Origin: Bordetella genomosp. 11
GTDB lineage: Bacteria; Pseudomonadota; Gammaproteobacteria; Burkholderiales; Burkholderiaceae_B
DNA: 64,000 bases
NCBI RefSeq assembly: GCF_002261215.1
Contig: NZ_NEVS01000001.1
Span: 1-64,000 of the forward strand
Direction of reading: 5' to 3'
Shown piece after piece: positions 1 through 57,205 of the stretch. Below the pieces are notes generated by a model. The model was not told the DNA's origin, made no database searches, and saw only the letters and a list, made by a program, of their open reading frames with translations. Every line of letters begins with the position of its first letter. The stretch's first letter is position 1. The translations under genes were made by a program, and so were the position numbers.

Positions 1-4
1 CTAG

Positions 5-19
5 GGTGTGTTAACAATC
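5..19 (+). repeat. Left terminal inverted repeat of the IS element
   Basis: GGTGTGTTAACAATC is the exact reverse complement of 810-824. The transposase stop codon (18-20 on the minus strand) overlaps its inner edge. Confidence 0.92.
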
Positions 20-769
20 AAGCCAACCAGATATAGGCACAAGCGAGACTGAGCATGCCAAAGAAGTTACGCGCCAGTTTTTCGTATCGCGTGGCGATGC
101 GGCGAAACTGCTTGAGACGACCGAAGAACCGTTCCACCAAATTGCGATCCTTATACACATGACGGTCATACTCTCTTTGCTCCACGCGATTGGCTTTGGG
201 CGGTATAACCGCCTCAATATCGCGCTGCGCAAGGTACTCCAGCACATGATTGGCGTCATAGCCTTTGTCTGCCAGCACGGCATCGGCTTCAAACCCTTCT
301 ATCAATGCCTGCGCATGCGTCACATCGCTTACCTGTCCACCACTGAGCAAACAGCGCAGCGGGTTGCCCAGCGCATCGACTGCCGCATGGATTTTGGTAC
401 TCAGCCCGCCTCTGGAGCGTCCAAGGGCTTGATCGCCTGCTTTTTTTGGGCTCCCGCTGCATGTTGGTGGGCTCTGACGATGGTGCTGTCAATCATGAGG
501 GCTTCCAAATCCTGGTCCACCCCCAGCACGCTCATGATGCCCAGCCATCTGCCGCGTTTGCACCAACGATTAAAGCGCGTGTATGTGCTGTGCCAGTTGC
601 CCAACTCTGTGGGCAGATCACGCCAGGGTGAGCCTGTTCGGGCGATCCACAGAACGGCTTCTATAAATCGCCGATTGTCTGCTGCGGTGACTCCGCTGTC
701 GCTGGCTTTGCCGGGCAACATCGCCTCGATCCTTGCCCATTTGGCGTCACTTAGAAGCTCTCTCGCCAT
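18..769 (-). CDS. IS5-family transposase made by programmed -1 frameshifting
   Basis: DDE transposase that cuts and joins the ends of its own element. The first frame (769 down to 401, 122 aa) holds the N-terminal DNA-binding part and the first catalytic Asp in IDSTIVRAHQ. The second frame continues to 18 and holds the second Asp (VLADKGYD) and the Glu in NLVERFFGRLKQFRR. An A7 run on the minus strand (441-447, codons CAA AAA AAG) lies before the first stop. A -1 slip there joins the frames into the typical IS5 stretch GRSRGGLSTKIHAAVDALG. The product would be about 250 aa, normal for this group. Because the slip site is the standard kind, I read the split as programmed frameshifting rather than decay. 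Confidence 0.88.
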
Positions 770-809
770 TGCACAGATTTGTAGTTTTGCTCCTCAAATC
801 ATAGCAAAC

Positions 810-824
810 GATTGTTAACACACC
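810..824 (-). repeat. Right terminal inverted repeat of the IS element
   Basis: GATTGTTAACACACC is the exact reverse complement of 5-19. It is followed directly by CTAG (825-828), which also occurs at 1-4 as the presumed target duplication. Confidence 0.92.
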
Positions 825-838
825 CTAGGAGTACTGCC

Positions 839-1171
839 ATGCAAGCCAAGACCATCGTTTCCGCTCTGATTCTTTCCTTCGCCGCGATCGGCGCCGCGCA
901 AGCGGCCAACAGCGAGCCCGACAATGTGCCCTTCCAGGGCGTGTACGGGCAAGCGGCCAACAGCGTCAGCCGCTCGCAAGTGCTGGCCGATCTGGCCCAA
1001 GCCCGCGAAGCCGGCCTGACGGCGAATGCCGACAGCGACAACGCGCCGTTCGTGGCGCAAGCCGACAGCGGCGTGACGCGTGCGCAAGTGGCGGCCGGTA
1101 TCGACCACGCCGACACCGCGACGAGCATCGCCTTCGGCGACACGAACAACCAGCCGTTCGAAGGTGCGTAA
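839..1171 (+). CDS. Small exported DUF4148-family protein, copy 1
   Basis: Exported protein of 110 aa with a clear signal peptide (MQAKTIVSALILSFAAIG, likely cleaved after AQA). The mature part has three spaced copies of an N-x-P-F motif (DNVPFQG, DNAPFVA, NNQPFEG) and a middle SRSQVLADLAQAREAGL helix. This matches the DUF4148 family of short periplasmic proteins from Burkholderiales, whose function is not settled. The start at 839 is chosen because AGGAG lies just upstream and the matching gene at 29787 starts at the same residue. The IS element ends 14 bp before this ATG, so the native promoter has been separated from the gene. The gene may be silent or driven from within the IS. Confidence 0.85.
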   Translation: MQAKTIVSALILSFAAIGAAQAANSEPDNVPFQGVYGQAANSVSRSQVLADLAQAREAGLTANADSDNAPFVAQADSGVTRAQVAAGIDHADTATSIAFGDTNNQPFEGA

Positions 1172-1390
1172 GCACCGACGGCGATTCCAGCCACGGGTGG
1201 CGTGATCGCGCGATCGGGAGACCGGTCAGCATCGGGGTCCGGCAAGTGTCGCGGACCGCGCCATCAGGAAGTCCGGCCGTTCATGCCCGCACGGATGAAC
1301 GGTTCCCCCCGGCGAGAGGCGGGGGATGCTGTAAGTGGCAGTCCTCTCGGCGCAGTACATCGGCCCTCCCCGCGAGGGCCGATTTTTTTT
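1172..1390 (+). ncRNA. Conserved 3'UTR, candidate 3'UTR-derived small RNA
   Basis: This gene-free stretch after the DUF4148 stop is nearly identical to 30093-30309, with about three differences in 190 bases. Visible elements in order are an 8-bp hairpin (CCGTTCAT/ATGAACGG, about 1277-1302), a hairpin closed by GAGAGG (1314-1319) and CCTCTC (1343-1348), a GCAGTAC linker, and a strong terminator. The last three elements also follow the more diverged third DUF4148 gene at 24392-24470. The pattern suggests a functional RNA, but no transcript evidence is available. The remaining bases to 1522 show only the upstream region of the next gene. Confidence 0.4.
1359..1390 (+). terminator. Rho-independent terminator after DUF4148 copy 1
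   Basis: Perfect 10-bp stem ATCGGCCCTC/GAGGGCCGAT with a 5-base loop, followed by a run of eight T (1383-1390). Confidence 0.92.
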
Positions 1391-24392: not shown

Positions 24393-24425
24393 AAAAGACA
24401 TCGGCCCCGTGAGGGCGGGGCCGAT
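24392..24425 (-). terminator. Rho-independent terminator after DUF4148 copy 3
   Basis: On the minus strand, stem ATCGGCCCC/GGGGCCGAT (24400-24425) with an 8-base loop, followed by a short T tract (24392-24396). It touches the stop codon of the convergent UdgX gene. Confidence 0.85.
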
Positions 24426-24546
24426 GGGTACTGCACGAGAGGAGCACCGGAAGACGCCCCGCCTCTCTTCGGGGCTGCCACCTGCCTTTTGGGCGGGCGG
24501 CCGGTCTGGTCGGCCGGCGTGTCCGCCGGCGCCGCGCCGTTCCGGC
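24392..24546 (-). ncRNA. Conserved 3'UTR, candidate small RNA (third copy)
   Basis: After the DUF4148 stop on the minus strand there is a GC-rich stretch, then a hairpin closed by GAGAGG (24467-24462) and CCTCTC (24442-24437), then GTGCAGTAC, then the terminator. The hairpin pair, the GCGGGG after its 5' arm, the GCAGTAC linker and the terminator match copies 1 and 2. The sequence farther upstream does not, and this is the pattern expected of a selected RNA element. Confidence 0.4.
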
Positions 24547-24876
24547 TTAAACGCCTTGGAACGGCTGGTTATCGAGATCGCCGAAGGCGACGTCGCCATG
24601 CACACCGCCGGCGGCGACCGTGGCGGGCACGGAGGGGACGTCGGCCTGGGCGGTGAACGGGGCATTGTCCACATCGGCATTGCCGGTCAGGCCGGCCGCG
24701 CGCGCTTGCGCCAGGTCTGCCGCGACTTGGCTACGGCTGGCGGCATTGCTGTCGACTTGGCCGTATACGCCCTGGAACGGGGTGTTGTCGGTGTCGCCGC
24801 GGGGCGTACCCGCTTGGGCGCCAGCCACCAGGGCCAGGGACAGGGCGACGGAAGAAACGAGGGTTTGGATTTTCAT
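24547..24876 (-). CDS. Small exported DUF4148-family protein, copy 3
   Basis: Protein of 109 aa with a signal peptide (MKIQTLVSSVALSLALVAGA, cleaved near AQA-G). It shares the family layout with copies 1 and 2: TDNTPFQGVYGQ, a SRSQVAADLAQARAAGL helix, VDNAPFTAQAD and LDNQPFQG near the end. Sequence identity to the other two is moderate, so this is an older paralog. GGAG lies before ATG with the same GTGCCATG context as the other copies. It lies downstream of the histidine kinase in the same direction but has its own promoter region. Confidence 0.84.
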   Translation of the reverse strand: MKIQTLVSSVALSLALVAGAQAGTPRGDTDNTPFQGVYGQVDSNAASRSQVAADLAQARAAGLTGNADVDNAPFTAQADVPSVPATVAAGGVHGDVAFGDLDNQPFQGV

Positions 24877-24960: not shown

Positions 24961-24979
24961 ATCATAGGGATAAACCCTT
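24961..24979 (-). promoter_or_regulatory. DUF4148 copy 3 promoter with AAGGGTTTATCCCTA element
   Basis: On the minus strand the AGGG-N5-CCCT dyad (24965-24979) is immediately followed by TATGAT (24961-24966), a good -10 hexamer, about 85 bases before the ATG. The same 15-mer lies upstream of DUF4148 copy 2. The surrounding region 24877-25111 is unusually AT-rich for this genome and holds no gene. Confidence 0.55.
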
Positions 24980-29653: not shown

Positions 29654-29668
29654 AAGGGTTTATCCCTA
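29654..29668 (+). promoter_or_regulatory. AAGGGTTTATCCCTA element upstream of DUF4148 copy 2
   Basis: Identical 15-mer to the one upstream of copy 3, here 118 bases before the ATG. The flanking bases are also similar, with a GAATT and CG block shortly upstream in both. It lies in the AT-rich gap 29555-29786, which holds no gene. Confidence 0.5.
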
Positions 29669-29786: not shown

Positions 29787-30092
29787 ATGCAAGCCAAGAC
29801 CATCGTTTCCGCTCTGATTCTTTCCTTCGCCGCGATCGGCGCCGCGCAAGCGGCCAACAGCGAGCCCAACAATGTGCCCTTCCAGGGCGTGTATGGGCAA
29901 GCCGCCAGCAGCGTCAGCCGTTCGCAAGTGCTGGCCGATCTGGCCCAGGCCCGCGAAGCCGGCCTGACGGGCAACCGCGAATCGAACAACGTGCCCTTCA
30001 CCGCGCAAGCCGACAGCGGCGTGAGCCGCGCGCAGATCGCGCTGGGCTCGGATTTCGGTGACACGAACAACCAGCCGTTCCAGGGTGCGTAA
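29787..30092 (+). CDS. Small exported DUF4148-family protein, copy 2
   Basis: Protein of 101 aa. The first 30 residues, including the signal peptide, are nearly identical to copy 1. The mature part has NNVPFQGVYGQ, a SRSQVLADLAQAREAGL helix, NNVPFTAQAD and NNQPFQG. It is nine residues shorter than copy 1 because of a gap before the last motif. AGGAG lies upstream in the same context as the other copies. It lies about 230 bases after the molybdoenzyme gene on the same strand, with a separate promoter element. Confidence 0.86.
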   Translation: MQAKTIVSALILSFAAIGAAQAANSEPNNVPFQGVYGQAASSVSRSQVLADLAQAREAGLTGNRESNNVPFTAQADSGVSRAQIALGSDFGDTNNQPFQGA

Positions 30093-30309
30093 GCACCGAC
30101 GGCGATTCCAGCCACGGGTGGCGTGATCGCGCGATCGGGAGACCGGTCAGCATCGGGGTCCGGCAAGTGTCGCGGACCGCGCCATCAGGAAGTCCGGCCG
30201 TTCATGCCCGCACGGATGAACGGTTCCCCCGGCGAGAGGCGGGGGGTGCTGTAAGTGGCAGTCCTCTCGGCGCAGTACGTCGGCCCCCTCACGGGGGCCG
30301 ATGTTTTTT
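30093..30309 (+). ncRNA. Conserved 3'UTR, candidate small RNA (second copy)
   Basis: Nearly identical to 1172-1390: the CCGTTCAT/ATGAACGG hairpin, the GAGAGG (30234-30239)/CCTCTC (30263-30268) hairpin, GCAGTAC and the terminator. A one-base deletion in a C run relative to copy 1 shifts every frame, so the conservation is not for protein. From 30310 to 30469 only the upstream region of the XdhC gene is seen. Confidence 0.42.
30280..30309 (+). terminator. Rho-independent terminator after DUF4148 copy 2
   Basis: Stem TCGGCCCC/GGGGCCGA with a short loop, followed by a T run at 30304-30309. Confidence 0.9.
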
Positions 30310-35647: not shown

Positions 35648-38600
35648 TTACTGCGTGTACGGCGACTTGAAGGTGTTGGCGGGCAGGCTGACGCCGCCCG
35701 GCATGGCGTCGAAGGTATAGCGGGCATACAGGCCGCCCACCCATTGGCGGTAGTCGCGCGCGTTGTCGATGCCTGCCATGCCGCCCAGGAACAACTGCGG
35801 ACCGACCTGGTATTCGGCGTTGGTCGCCAGGCTGTAGCCCACGCCGGTCTTGCTCTGGCCGTCGTAGCGGGCATCCGGCGAACCGGTCTGCCCCTGCGCG
35901 TAAGCGATGGCCGCGGCCGCGTTGGCGGCGCTCTGCAGGCTGCCGCTGGTCGGGAAGTACGGCGATGAACTTGTATGGAAGTACTGCAGGCCCAGCGATC
36001 CGCGCACCTGGTAGCTGAAGTTGCCTTGCCGCTGCGCCCAGTTCACCGGCACGCTGAGCGCGTAGTATTCCTGCGGACTGAAGTAGCCGCCCTGGCCGTA
36101 GGTGAAGTAGCTGAGGTTCTTGTCATAGGACATGGCCATCAGGTTCAGCCCGCTGGTCAGCTGGTAGTTGGTATCGCGCAGCAGGTACTTGTACAGGCCG
36201 ACACCGCCTTCCAGTTTGGTGTTCGATTCGACGTTGCGGCCGTCCAGCGATTGCCAGGATCCATAGCCATATACGCCGTAGTCGCCATAGTCCTGCGTCA
36301 GCTGGAGCCGGACGCCGGTCGCCGCGACCGCGCCCCAGGACTGGCCGGTGCGGGCATCGCGCGCGCCGGCGAAGGAAAGCAGGCTGTCGGTGACCGGGCG
36401 GCGCGACAGCTCGGCCGTATAGGACAGGCCGCTATCGTTGAGCGGGCGATTCAGCTTCACGCCGCCGACCACGTTCGTGTAGCGAAAGCCGATGGGCGTC
36501 GTGCCCAGGTCGGCGGACAGGCCGTTGGTGTCGTAGCCCACGGACAGGCCGACGCCATGGTCGCTTTGCGATCCCGCCGATCCCGTCGTGCCGTTCTGTT
36601 GGGCCAGCGCCGCGGCCGGGCCGCCGCCGAACCGGCTGTTGGCGCCATAGCCCTGGCCGATTGAGCCGGCCTGCAGGGTGGTGGGCGTGACGCGCAAGGT
36701 GAGATTGCCGTCGCCCACCGGCAGGCGGGCTTCGGATGGCGCTTCGATGTCGTTGAGCTTGCCCATGCCCGATTCGCCGTTGCGGTTGCGGCCCAGCAGG
36801 CCGACCTGCGCATAGGGCGTGGCGGTACGCATGAGCTGGTCCAGCTCCTGTTGTATGGAGGGCGGTGCGGCGGGCTGGGCAGCGGGCGCCGCGGCGCGGC
36901 CGCCGCTTGTGCCGGCGGCCTGCGCATATCCGTAGCCGTCCGCGCGCGGCGCCGCATAGCCGGGGGCGGCGGCGTAGCCCGGGGGGGCATAAGCCGGTGC
37001 CGGCGCGTAGCCCGGTGGCGGCGCATAACCCGGTGCGGGTGCGTAACCTGCCGTTGGCGCATAAGCCGGCGTTGGCGCATAACCCGGCGCCGCGGTATCC
37101 GCATAGGCGTATTGCACCGATCCCGCGGGTGCCTGGTAGGGCGCCGGCGGTTGCAGCGACGAAGCCGGGGCGGGAATATAGGCACCCTGGCCAGCGCTGG
37201 TCGCGCCGGCGCTCGCCAGCGCTTCGGGCATCGGCAGCGGCGCCATGCCCAGGGTCGATTGCGTGCGTTGTCCCGGCAGTCCGATGAAGGGATTGCCCGC
37301 CGCGGGCGAGGCGTCCGCCACGCGCGTGCCATTGCCGCCCGATTGTTCCGCCGCCAAGGCGGCTTTCAGCAGTTGGGCGGCCTTCGACGTCTTGCCCTGT
37401 TCGCGATAGATGCGCGCGGCGGAGGCCAGTACGTCCGGGCTATCGGGCGCCAGCGCGATCGCCTTCTGCGCGGCGCTGTCCGCGTAGTCGTAGTCCTTGA
37501 CGCGGTTGGCCATCTGCGCGGCGCCCAGCTGCACGTCGACGTTGCCGGGATCGCTGCGCTGCAGCTTCTTGTACAGATCCAGCGCCTTCGGGTATTCCTG
37601 CGCGCTGGCGTACATGCGGGCCAGCGTGACGACCACCAGGGGGTCGTTGGGGCGCTCCTGCAGGACGGGCGCCAGGATGTCATAGGCGGCGACCAGGTCG
37701 TCGCGTTGGCGCAAGGCTTCGGCCTGCCGCACGATATACAGGACCCGCAGGTTGTCGAAGCTGTCCTGGTCGGCCTGGCTCAGGCGCTGCCGCTGCAGCG
37801 ACCGCAGCACATCGACCAGTTCGGCATCCCGCCCCGTCTTCAGCAGCAGGGACGCGTATTGCAGCGATAGCGCCGGCGGCGGATTGCCGCGCGCCATCGC
37901 GTCGCGCAGCATGGCCGTGCCGGTAGCCGTGTCGCCCGCGTCGACGTAGGCCAGCGCCAGGGCGCCCAGCATGTCGGGGTCCTGTCCGGCGTAGGCGGTG
38001 CTTTGCGCCAGCAGGTTCAGCGCTTCTTTGCGCCGGCCGCTCTTGGCCATGCGCGATGCCAGCGCAGCCTGCGATTGGACCCAGGTGCGGCGCTCCAGCA
38101 GCGCCACGTCGGCAGTGCGTGCGGCTTCCGGGATGCGGCGCAATGCGGCAAGCGCGCGATCCCATTCCTTGGCTTGCGCCGAGACCAGCGCGCTGGCGTA
38201 CAGGGCCTGGTCGTCGCCCGGCCGCGCCGCTGTCAGTTCGTCCATGACGGCGAGCGCGCGCGTTTTATCCCCTGCTTTCAGGTACAGCCGGGCGAGCGAC
38301 ACGCGTATCCATGGGTCGGCCGGATCCTCCTTCACGGCCTGTTGCAGCGCCGCCCGCGCGGTCGCGTCGTCGCCGCGCGCCAGCGCGGCCTTGGCGCGGC
38401 CGTCGTCCAATGCGGCACGCAGGATGTCGGCGTTGCCGACCGCCGTCCGTTGGGCCGGCGTCAGGCCGTCGATCATGCGGCGCGCTTCGCTCTCCTTGCC
38501 GTTGCGGGCCAGCACCGACACCAGTCCGCGCAGGGTATCGGCATCGTCGGGCGCTACCGCCAGCGCGCCGCGATACAGCCGTTCCGCTTCGTCCAGCCTG

Positions 38601-56043: not shown

Positions 56044-56284
56044 GTTGCTGTCGGGGCGCGTCTTGCTAATGCCGTCCGGCGGGGGTGGTGCCTGTCGGGG
56101 CCAGCCCGATCGTCCGTCCCGGCGCGCGGGCGCCGGGCACCGCGTCGCTAATCTCGTCCGGCGGGCGTTGGCTTGTGGTGTTCTTGGCGATGGCGTCCGC
56201 GCCACGCCTCCCTTCGATTGCGCTCGCTCGTCCTCAACGGGCTGGCCCCGACAGGCACCACCCCCGCCGGACTCCGGTTTGCCT
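56044..56284 (+). repeat. Left arm of a long inverted repeat
   Basis: About 240 bases nearly identical to the reverse complement of 56965-57205. Similarity continues more weakly to about 56430. Inside this arm a 35-base unit at 56074-56108 is repeated exactly in inverse orientation at 56238-56272, so the arm is itself palindromic. Confidence 0.9.
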
Positions 56285-56483
56285 TAATTACGGTCGCTGC
56301 GACGAGCTGGGTTCTTGCGCTTCGTGGGTGGCGGATGCTGCCGCTGGAAGATTCAGCATTGCACGTCGCATCGAGGCCGCCCAGCGCGGCCCCGCTGCGC
56401 CTACGCCGTAGTTGAGTGCGGCGGGCTGCATGCGAATGGCGGTGGGGATGGGGGCGGCGGTGGAATGCGACGTGCTCGAATGT

Positions 56484-56670
56484 CGCAGACGCAGGAATCC
56501 TGACAGTCCTGTCGGGAGACTGCAGACACAGAAATCCTGACAGTCTCGACACCGCCACAGGATTCTGCGGACACGACGGTCCTGACACCCCGCAAGCTCT
56601 GGATGCCGCGGGCACAAAGGTCCTGACGCCTCGACAGGCTTGGATGCCACGGCTACTCCTCAATCCTGAC
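56484..56670 (+). repeat. Degenerate tandem repeat, about 41-base period, five copies
   Basis: The core TCCTGAC recurs at 56498, 56535, 56580, 56621 and 56664 (spacing 37, 45, 41, 43). In the fuller units it is preceded by GCAGACAC, GCGGACAC or GCGGGCAC. The period is not a multiple of three and no long frame is preserved, so it is not a protein repeat. Confidence 0.65.
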
Positions 56671-56964
56671 AGTGCCGTCCGCGCTCCTGGGCCGCGTCGC
56701 GGCTCGGTCCCCATGTCGCGTATCGTTGACCATCTCGGCTCGTTGGCCATCTTGCCCATGGCTCATGCGAATGTACGCATGCAACGGCATCCACTCCGGA
56801 TGCAAAACCGTCGCACGAAAGCACCCGCGGCATGACGTACCGTGTAGGCGATCGCTGGCCGCGCTGGGCGGCCGGCGATCGACGTGCGCCACAAAATCTT
56901 TCTACGGCAGCATCCGCTGCCGACGAAGCGCAAGAACGCAGCCCGTCCCAGCGAACGGTGAATA

Positions 56965-57205
56965 AGGCAAACCGGAGTCCGGCGGGGGTGGTGCCTGTCG
57001 GGGCCAGCCCGTTGAGGACGAGCGAGCGGAATCGAAGGGAGGCGAGGCGCGGATGCCATCGCCAAGAACACCACAAGCCAACGCCCGCCGGACGAGATTA
57101 GCGTAGCGGTGCCCGGCGCCCGCGCGCCGGGACGGACGATCGGGCTGGCCCCGACAGGCACCACCCCCGACGGACGGCACAAGCAAGACACGCCCCGACA
57201 GCAAC
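56965..57205 (-). repeat. Right arm of a long inverted repeat
   Basis: Reverse complement of 56044-56284 with a small number of changes. The same 35-base unit occurs here at 56977-57011 and, with one change, inverted at 57141-57175. Confidence 0.9.

What the first reader, a model, noticed from the sequence alone, without database searches (positions are those of the whole stretch)
1172..1390. Three DUF4148 genes share a structured 3'UTR that looks like a small-RNA family
After all three DUF4148 stops (1172-1390, 30093-30309, and minus strand 24546-24392) the same order occurs: a hairpin closed by GAGAGG/CCTCTC, a GCAGTAC linker, and a strong terminator. Copies 1 and 2 are nearly identical, but copy 3 keeps only the structural parts while its surroundings have diverged. 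A one-base indel between copies 1 and 2 destroys any shared reading frame. The 3' arm (TCCTCTC) is complementary to ribosome-binding sites, which suggests a trans-acting RNA released from the 3' end of the mRNA.
Basis: partly seen in the sequence, partly recalled or inferred. Interest (0 to 1): 0.75.

Follow-up and report, generated by a model that had tools for sequence, protein, structure and literature searches.

The report
Pseudoknot RNA behind DUF4148 genes
Behind each of three copies of a small bacterial gene sits the same folded RNA, a knot-like structure that related bacteria keep in up to 18 copies and in one case without the gene, so it is probably a small RNA that can act on its own.

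Summary
All three DUF4148 genes end in one RNA module: AGUCC or AGACC, a hairpin, an H-type pseudoknot, usually GCAGUAC, then a terminator. The GAGAGG/CCUCUC pairing is real, but GAGAGG is the loop of a second stem (CCCCG/CGGGG), so the helices cross. A covariance model found 44 copies: 3 in the window, 41 in the six held genomes of one Bordetella/Achromobacter-like genus (2 to 18 each). Both helices covary: one S2 pair is A-U, G-C or C-G with no break in 32 distinct copies; three S1 pairs change on both sides. No Rfam family reaches its cut-off. 42 copies follow a DUF4148-type ORF; one lies at a contig edge; one (Achromobacter sp. HZ34) has promoter block, leader and module but no DUF4148 gene. 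That favours an RNA with its own function, most likely a 3'UTR-derived small RNA of RydC-like build. The proposed anti-ribosome-binding-site action is not supported: CCUCUC is paired in every copy, GCAGUAC is in 30 of 44, and pairing with the gene's own leader is at shuffled level. Expression, Hfq binding and targets are untested. Moderate interest.

The parts
839..1171 (+). DUF4148 gene, copy 1 (110 aa)
   Evidence: ORF read; PF13663 E 2.4e-10, 41.1 bits
1268..1304 (+). copy 1: GAAGTCC boundary motif (1268-1274) and 5' hairpin HP1 (1275-1304)
1306..1348 (+). copy 1 H-type pseudoknot: S1 1306-1311/1320-1325, L1 1312-1313, S2 1314-1319/1343-1348, L3 1326-1342
1352..1358 (+). copy 1 GCAGTAC linker
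1359..1390 (+). copy 1 terminator hairpin and eight T
29787..30092 (+). DUF4148 gene, copy 2 (101 aa)
   Evidence: PF13663 E 2.8e-9
30189..30225 (+). copy 2: GAAGTCC boundary motif (30189-30195) and HP1 (30196-30225)
30226..30268 (+). copy 2 pseudoknot: S1 30226-30231/30240-30245, S2 30234-30239/30263-30268
30272..30309 (+). copy 2 GCAGTAC (30272-30278) and terminator (to 30309)
24547..24876 (-). DUF4148 gene, copy 3 (109 aa)
   Evidence: PF13663 just over the cut-off, 27.1 bits against 27
24477..24507 (-). copy 3: AGACC variant of the boundary motif (24507-24503) and HP1 (24501-24477)
24437..24475 (-). copy 3 pseudoknot: S1 24475-24470/24461-24456, S2 24467-24462/24442-24437
24394..24434 (-). 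copy 3 GCAGTAC (24434-24428) and terminator
29656..29668 (+). GGGTTTATCCCTA, core of the conserved upstream (promoter-like) block of copy 2
24965..24977 (-). GGGTTTATCCCTA, core of the same block upstream of copy 3

Best explanation
A self-contained RNA module of about 120 nt (AGUCC or AGACC, hairpin HP1, H-type pseudoknot, short linker, terminator) lies in the 3'UTR of DUF4148 genes in one Bordetella/Achromobacter-like genus. Most likely it accumulates as a stable 3'UTR-derived small RNA: transcription from the DUF4148 promoter, cleavage just 5' of the conserved GAAGUCC, then a pseudoknot-plus-terminator body protecting the RNA, as in the pseudoknotted sRNA RydC. Shown by sequence: the module, its two covarying helices, its borders, its noncoding nature, its copy number, and one copy that keeps promoter block and module without the gene. 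Inferred: cleavage, stability, Hfq or other protein binding, and that GAAGUCC at the new 5' end rather than CCUCUC is the target-pairing part.
For: Pseudoknot: 371 pair cells in 32 distinct copies are 98.9% standard; covariation score 0.174 against 0.067 +/- 0.009 in shuffles, 0 of 500 as high; sliding the partner drops pairing to 44-70%. S2 second pair A-U 26, G-C 4, C-G 2, none broken; S1 has three pairs changed on both sides. Sizes fit an H-type knot: S1 up to 6 bp, L1 2 nt, S2 6 bp, no nucleotide between S2 5' and S1 3', L3 11-17 nt. HP1: 29 of 29 distinct 34-nt stretches before S1 fold into a hairpin ending 0 or 1 nt before S1, with very different sequences, mean z -2.7, 26 of 29 under -1.5. 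5' border: AGWCC in 43 of 44 copies against 2.3% of 20-nt stretches of the window; in 19 non-redundant copies the commonest base has 15-19 of 19 across GAAGUCC but 6-14 of 19 in the 28 nt before it. T-runs: 37 of 44 have at least 5 T in 9 nt after a hairpin. Gene-less copy: in HZ34 (G006:C15:102432-102516) the GGGTTTATCC block and leader run straight into the module, with all S1 and S2 pairs standard and no DUF4148-like reading frame in the 2-kb locus. Noncoding: L3 takes every length from 11 to 17 nt.
Against: No transcript evidence of any kind was available. One of the five covariation measures is weaker: 4 pairs with a change on both sides were reached by 36 of 500 shuffles. Five of six S2 pairs never vary, and the two S2 changes are probably two events (one sequence group with one copy in each of four genomes, and one pair in HZ34). 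GCAGTAC is in only 30 of 44 copies and the T-run is weak in 7 of 44. The gene-less case is single, its T-run is one of the weak ones (3 of 9), two S1 pairs are G-U wobbles, and its module is further from its three nearest copies (84-88%) than these are from each other (90-96%), so slow decay after a deletion is possible. Thermodynamic folding alone does not choose the knot: it picks S1 in three of five cores and the S2 hairpin in two, with energies not unusual against shuffles. No target was found.
Confidence: 0.5

Rival explanations
1. Cis element: hairpin and pseudoknot stabilise the DUF4148 mRNA or bind a protein that controls its decay, and no separate RNA is made.
For: 42 of 44 copies follow a DUF4148-type ORF; the most conserved part is the fold itself, and no unpaired segment looked at except AGWCC is near universal.
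Against: The HZ34 copy keeps the module with no gene to protect; paralogs in the same genomes do with a plain terminator (L179, L184, L189).
Confidence: 0.27
2. One reading: a trans-acting RNA whose CCUCUC arm (with GCAGUAC) pairs with ribosome-binding sites.
For: The CCUC core is invariant in all 44 copies, and Achromobacter DUF4148 3'UTRs carry a CCTCCCC...GTTGTACC block at the same place, without the knot.
Against: The arm is paired with the loop in every copy and changes with it; GCAGTAC in 30 of 44; pairing with the own leader at shuffled level: 39 distinct pairs, z from -2.9 to +1.6, centred near zero. Leaders of other genes were not tested.
Confidence: 0.12
3. Hitch-hiking: a terminator region copied along with a duplicating gene, with no function of its own.
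For: The closest copies (window 1 and 2, G008 arrays) come from duplication of the whole unit. The gene-less copy has a weak T-run and is the most diverged of its group.
Against: Compensatory changes in both knot helices, a hairpin kept with different sequences, a sharp 5' border, and a paired module after loss of the gene.
Confidence: 0.06
4. A metabolite-sensing pseudoknot (riboswitch-like) that acts on its own terminator or on downstream genes.
For: Small H-type knots are a known riboswitch form (recalled); the knot lies just before a terminator.
Against: No helix found overlaps the terminator arms. In the window the neighbours downstream differ: FAS1/MaoC-type dehydratase, a converging uracil-DNA glycosylase, and an XdhC-like gene. 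Neighbours in the relatives were not surveyed.
Confidence: 0.05

Closest known systems
RydC (enterobacterial Hfq-dependent sRNA; eLife 2014, PMC4337610, passages read)
   Same: Pseudoknot and a 3' U-rich tail, with a 5' seed in front; in RydC the knot is needed for stability.
   Different: RydC belongs to Salmonella and E. coli and is an sRNA in its own right (the latter recalled). Here the module carries an extra hairpin, sits behind DUF4148 genes and is multicopy. No homology is claimed.
UTR-derived sRNAs such as CcsR1-4 of Rhodobacter (PMC8625941, abstract and outline seen)
   Same: UTR-derived RNAs, several related copies; RNase E processing is described there for UTR-derived sRNAs.
   Different: That CcsR RNAs lie in a 3'UTR, expose CCUCC-type loops and follow a DUF1127 gene is recalled. 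Here the CU-rich arm is locked in a pseudoknot, the gene family differs, and processing is not shown.
Rfam RF02837 anti-hemB (Burkholderia RNA 7)
   Same: Weak full-length structural match to copy 1: two hairpins then a terminator (19.5 bits).
   Different: Far below the family's gathering score of 49.5; the match is carried by hairpins and T-run, and the alignment shows no GAGAGG/CCUCUC knot.
S17 sRNA of Bordetella pertussis, similar to bdhR1 of Burkholderia (PMC11722255, passages read)
   Same: Betaproteobacterial sRNA ending in a terminator and processed by RNase E.
   Different: S17 lies between BP3151 and coq7 and has a 27-nt invariant region; the passages read mention no DUF4148 gene and no pseudoknot.

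Membership tests
3'UTR-derived small RNA | encoded in the 3'UTR and sharing the mRNA's terminator | tested here: met
   42 of 44 copies follow a DUF4148-type ORF by 35-191 nt; 9 of 9 such proteins given to Pfam, copy 1 included, reach the DUF4148 cut-off; 37 of 44 have a T-run after a hairpin
3'UTR-derived small RNA | a discrete stable RNA species from cleavage or an internal promoter | not testable with these tools
   no expression data; only a conserved 5' border and one gene-less copy point to it
3'UTR-derived small RNA | base-pairs with other mRNAs | tested here: inconclusive
   own-leader pairing not above shuffles; other targets not searched
H-type pseudoknot RNA | two crossing helices supported by compensatory change | tested here: met
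   no probing data
RydC | sequence homology to RydC | tested here: not met
   no Rfam family reached its gathering score in the window or, tRNA apart, in the 20 loci holding 38 of the 41 other copies; that Rfam holds a RydC family is recalled
RydC | Hfq binding and Hfq-dependent stability | not testable with these tools
   needs co-immunoprecipitation or an hfq mutant
Rfam RF02837 anti-hemB | score at or above the gathering cut-off | tested here: not met
   19.5 bits against 49.5 for copy 1
anti-Shine-Dalgarno sRNA | conserved CU-rich segment unpaired and free | tested here: not met
   CCUC(U/C/G)C is complementary to the S1 loop in all 44 copies and co-varies with it

The most novel reading that the evidence does not exclude
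A pseudoknotted regulatory RNA gene that travels as the 3'UTR of a stress-type small secreted-protein gene, is multiplied with it in tandem arrays (18 copies in one genome) so that RNA dose can rise, and can shed the protein gene to become a free-standing sRNA gene, as caught in HZ34.
Probability: 0.32. Interest if true: 0.7.

Novelty: new variant of a known kind. Interest (0 to 1): 0.5.

Why it matters
If true, it adds an RNA family that no Rfam 15 model recognises and gives a case where the step from mRNA 3'UTR to independent sRNA gene can be followed inside one genus: gene with module, tandem arrays, and module without gene. It also gives a pseudoknotted sRNA candidate outside the enterobacteria, testable with simple Northern blots.

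Tried and rejected
Own-gene feedback: GCAGTAC of window copies 1 and 2 is complementary to GTACTGC at their start codons, and GCAGTTCT of the L117 group to its leader, but other groups do not keep this, and duplex energies lie at shuffled level (39 distinct leader/tail pairs from 42 genes, 100 shuffles each). Rejected as a general mechanism.

Mini-ORF: in copies 1 and 2 and the G008 arrays a start codon plus CTG TAA follows the S1 stem, but copy 3 and the LUAb4 group lack it. Rejected.

Wider family: R1 was run on all 46 DUF4148 loci (24, 22; L037 holds no 3' sequence). Only L001 is a strong match; the best of the rest are 11-20 bits, several of them at the Achromobacter 3'UTR block. The scan used two peptide patterns and is no census. 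R1 on the 40 loci (43 DUF4148 matches, also read by eye) found one strong match, L191, already among the 44 as L121:7371. The loci from G001, G005, G006 and G009 in that set were picked mainly because R1 had not marked them. The family scan (268 genomes, stricter filters) gave five extra matches of 23-28 bits; read by eye none shows both helices, though L111 has an S1-like stem.

Rows dropped before counting 44: 11 of the 55 rows, all under 28 bits (L107-L111; two places in G007 seen twice through L101 and L105; L114:11054; L125:2082 minus).

Terminator and HP1 pairs were not counted on an alignment: MAFFT shifted HP1 by one column in some groups (A6), so only per-copy folds are reported. Alignment A3 behind R1 has the tail of copy 3 shifted by two columns, which A5 does not. 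In one search GAGG and CCTC served as anchors; no copy failed them, but those four S2 pairs are not an independent test there, and A5 was cut with the same anchors. The 19 copies were aligned on AGWCC, so that motif's own conservation is partly built in; its presence in 43 of 44 is not.

Literature (one open-licence library): DUF4148 with sRNA, 0 papers; DUF4148 alone, 9 papers, none about its 3'UTR by title or the start of the abstract; Bordetella with 3 UTR, pseudoknot, small RNA, tandem, 0 papers holding four of five terms. In PMC12235514 a search for DUF4148 and similar terms gave no passage.

Full report
WHAT IS THERE. The window carries three DUF4148 genes: 839-1171 (+), 29787-30092 (+) and 24547-24876 (-). 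That is right but incomplete: GAGAGG is itself the loop of a stem, CCCCCG/CGGGGG in copies 1 and 2 and GCCCCG/CGGGGC in copy 3. The CCTCTC strand lies outside that stem, so the two helices cross and make an H-type pseudoknot: S1 6 bp, L1 2 nt, S2 6 bp, no nucleotide between the S2 5' and S1 3' strands, L3 13-17 nt in the window.

RELATIVES. A genome-contig scan with the three proteins gave 46 DUF4148 loci, all named Bordetella or Achromobacter. Only L001 (Bordetella sp. LUAb4) has the module, with loop GGGAGG and tail CCTCCC, a compensatory change. A covariance model R1 from the three window copies and L001 (structure: S1 and terminator, not S2) found the module in 6 of 6 held genomes of LUAb4's GTDB genus. 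In 268 genomes of the GTDB family only those six gave strong matches; five others gave 23-28 bits, and none of these shows both helices. This makes 44 copies with the window (35 bits or more): 3 in the window, 7 in G001 (LUAb4), 3 in G005 (A. aloeverae), 7 in G006 (HZ34), 4 in G007, 18 in G008, 2 in G009.

STRUCTURE TEST. All 44 copies have the loop and tail, and all six S2 pairs are standard in every copy (GAGG and CCTC were anchors). On 32 distinct cores (A5), 98.9% of 371 cells pair. S2 column pair 10:42 is A-U in 26, G-C in 4, C-G in 2, with no exception; the other five S2 pairs never vary. S1 has three pairs with changes on both sides. The covariation score of 0.174 and the percentage paired were reached by 0 of 500 shuffles; the number of further pair types by 1; the plain number of pairs with a change on both sides (4) by 36. 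Sliding the partner by 1-3 columns lowers pairing to 44-70%. Because R1 did not include S2, the S2 pairing was not built in by the model. The S2 changes are probably only two events: one sequence group with one copy each in G001, G005, G006 and G007 (synteny not tested), and a pair in G006.

BORDERS. Directly 5' of S1 every copy has a hairpin HP1 (29 of 29 distinct stretches, ending 0 or 1 nt before S1, mean z -2.7) whose sequence differs strongly between groups. In front of it stands AGUCC (38) or AGACC (5) in 43 of 44 copies, mostly as GAAGUCC; the 28 nt before that are far less conserved in 19 non-redundant copies. After the tail, GCAGTAC is in 30 of 44 copies (GCAGTA in 33), so it is not a defining part. 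37 of 44 have at least 5 T in the 9 nt after a downstream hairpin. Four copies (L118, L123, L130, L051:182) have GTAGTAC-type repeats where others have the terminator hairpin.

GENE AND RNA CAN PART. 42 of 44 copies follow a DUF4148-type ORF, 35-191 nt after its stop; 9 of 9 of these proteins given to Pfam, window copy 1 included, reach the DUF4148 cut-off. One copy lies at a contig edge (L051:182). One, L116 in HZ34, has no DUF4148-like frame in its 2-kb locus: the GGGTTTATCC block and leader run straight into the module. Its knot pairs are all standard, two S1 pairs as G-U. Its module is 84-88% identical to its three nearest gene-bearing copies, which are 90-96% identical to each other; its leader is 68-80% identical to theirs, which are 75-87% to each other (the last bases of the module alignment are shifted by one gap). 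Its T-run is weak, 3 of 9. So the module has outlived the gene, but slow decay cannot be excluded. Conversely, several DUF4148 paralogs in the same genomes have only a plain terminator (L179, L184, L189).

COPY NUMBER. G008 is a relative of the window's organism, 80-91% identical in the longer shared stretches outside the repeats. It carries 18 copies, 15 of them in three arrays (five, six and four copies) with units about 720-880 bp apart.

PROMOTER AND CONTEXT. The 13-mer GGGTTTATCC(C/T)TA is present in 31 of the 46 loci (in L010 it precedes a neighbouring gene), upstream of window copies 2 and 3, and as exact GG(G/C)TTTATCC within 900 nt of 29 of 44 copies (in arrays a neighbour's block may be counted). 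Copy 1 lacks it: an IS5-type transposase region lies upstream and similarity to the G008 units begins at 825. Copy 3 follows a histidine kinase/response regulator pair, and copy 2 follows a cytochrome b561 and an oxidoreductase molybdopterin gene. In an Achromobacter strain an operon encoding a DUF4148 protein is among the most induced by arsenite and antimonite (PMC11719878, one passage read); whether that gene has a related 3'UTR was not checked.

MECHANISM. Best reading, about 0.5: a 3'UTR-derived sRNA with 5' GAAGUCC, HP1, pseudoknot and terminator, similar in build to RydC, where the knot is needed for stability (PMC4337610, passages). Cis stabiliser or protein site: about 0.27. None of the steps of cleavage, binding or targeting has been shown.

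NOVELTY. No Rfam family reaches its cut-off in the window or, tRNA apart, in 20 loci (102,320 bases) that hold 38 of the 41 other copies. The best weak match is anti-hemB, 19.5 bits against 49.5. No paper in the searched library joins DUF4148 with sRNA. I call it a new variant of a known kind: a multicopy pseudoknotted 3'UTR RNA.

Noticed in passing
window 1-824: IS5-type transposase fragments (DDE_Tnp_1 at 18-350 minus, DUF4096 at 401-769 minus) lie directly upstream of DUF4148 copy 1, and the conserved promoter block is missing there, so copy 1 may be silent or driven from the IS.
   Followed up: partly
L112, L113, L114 (G008): Tandem arrays of promoter-DUF4148-RNA units about 720-880 bp apart; 18 module copies in this relative against 3 in the window.
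   Followed up: partly
L181, L185, L190, L118, L123, L130: DUF4148 3'UTRs with short repeats of the type GAAGCACGTAGTACC (15-nt period, 6.9 copies in L181); purpose unknown, perhaps binding sites in series.
   Followed up: partly
L005, L016, L020, L022-L028, L030-L036, L038-L040, L042-L044: Achromobacter DUF4148 genes end in CCTCCCCTTGTTGTACCTTGG just before the terminator (exact in 21 of the 46 loci, changed in L026 and L028) while the flanks differ. One copy in each of 5 Achromobacter genomes tested, none in 3 genomes of the module's genus; with 3 mismatches allowed the reversed control pattern also matched once in two genomes. R1 scores several of these ends weakly (11-20 bits). It looks like a separate, perhaps distantly related sRNA candidate.
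   Followed up: partly
window 24965-24977 (-), 29656-29668 (+), and loci: Strongly conserved upstream block (TGGAAATATCTTTTACCGATATACGGGTTTATCCCTA...GCGCAGAATTCAGTCATCGGGAAACA type) in Bordetella and Achromobacter DUF4148 genes; no regulator was identified, and a text search for its core listed 10 of 32 papers, none on these bacteria by title.
   Followed up: partly
window 56074-57175: A 35-nt sequence occurs four times, twice in each orientation (56074, 56977 direct; 56238, 57141 reversed, one with a mismatch).
   Followed up: no
window 36983-37108: An 18-bp-period repeat array (family D3), perhaps repeats inside a coding sequence.
   Followed up: no
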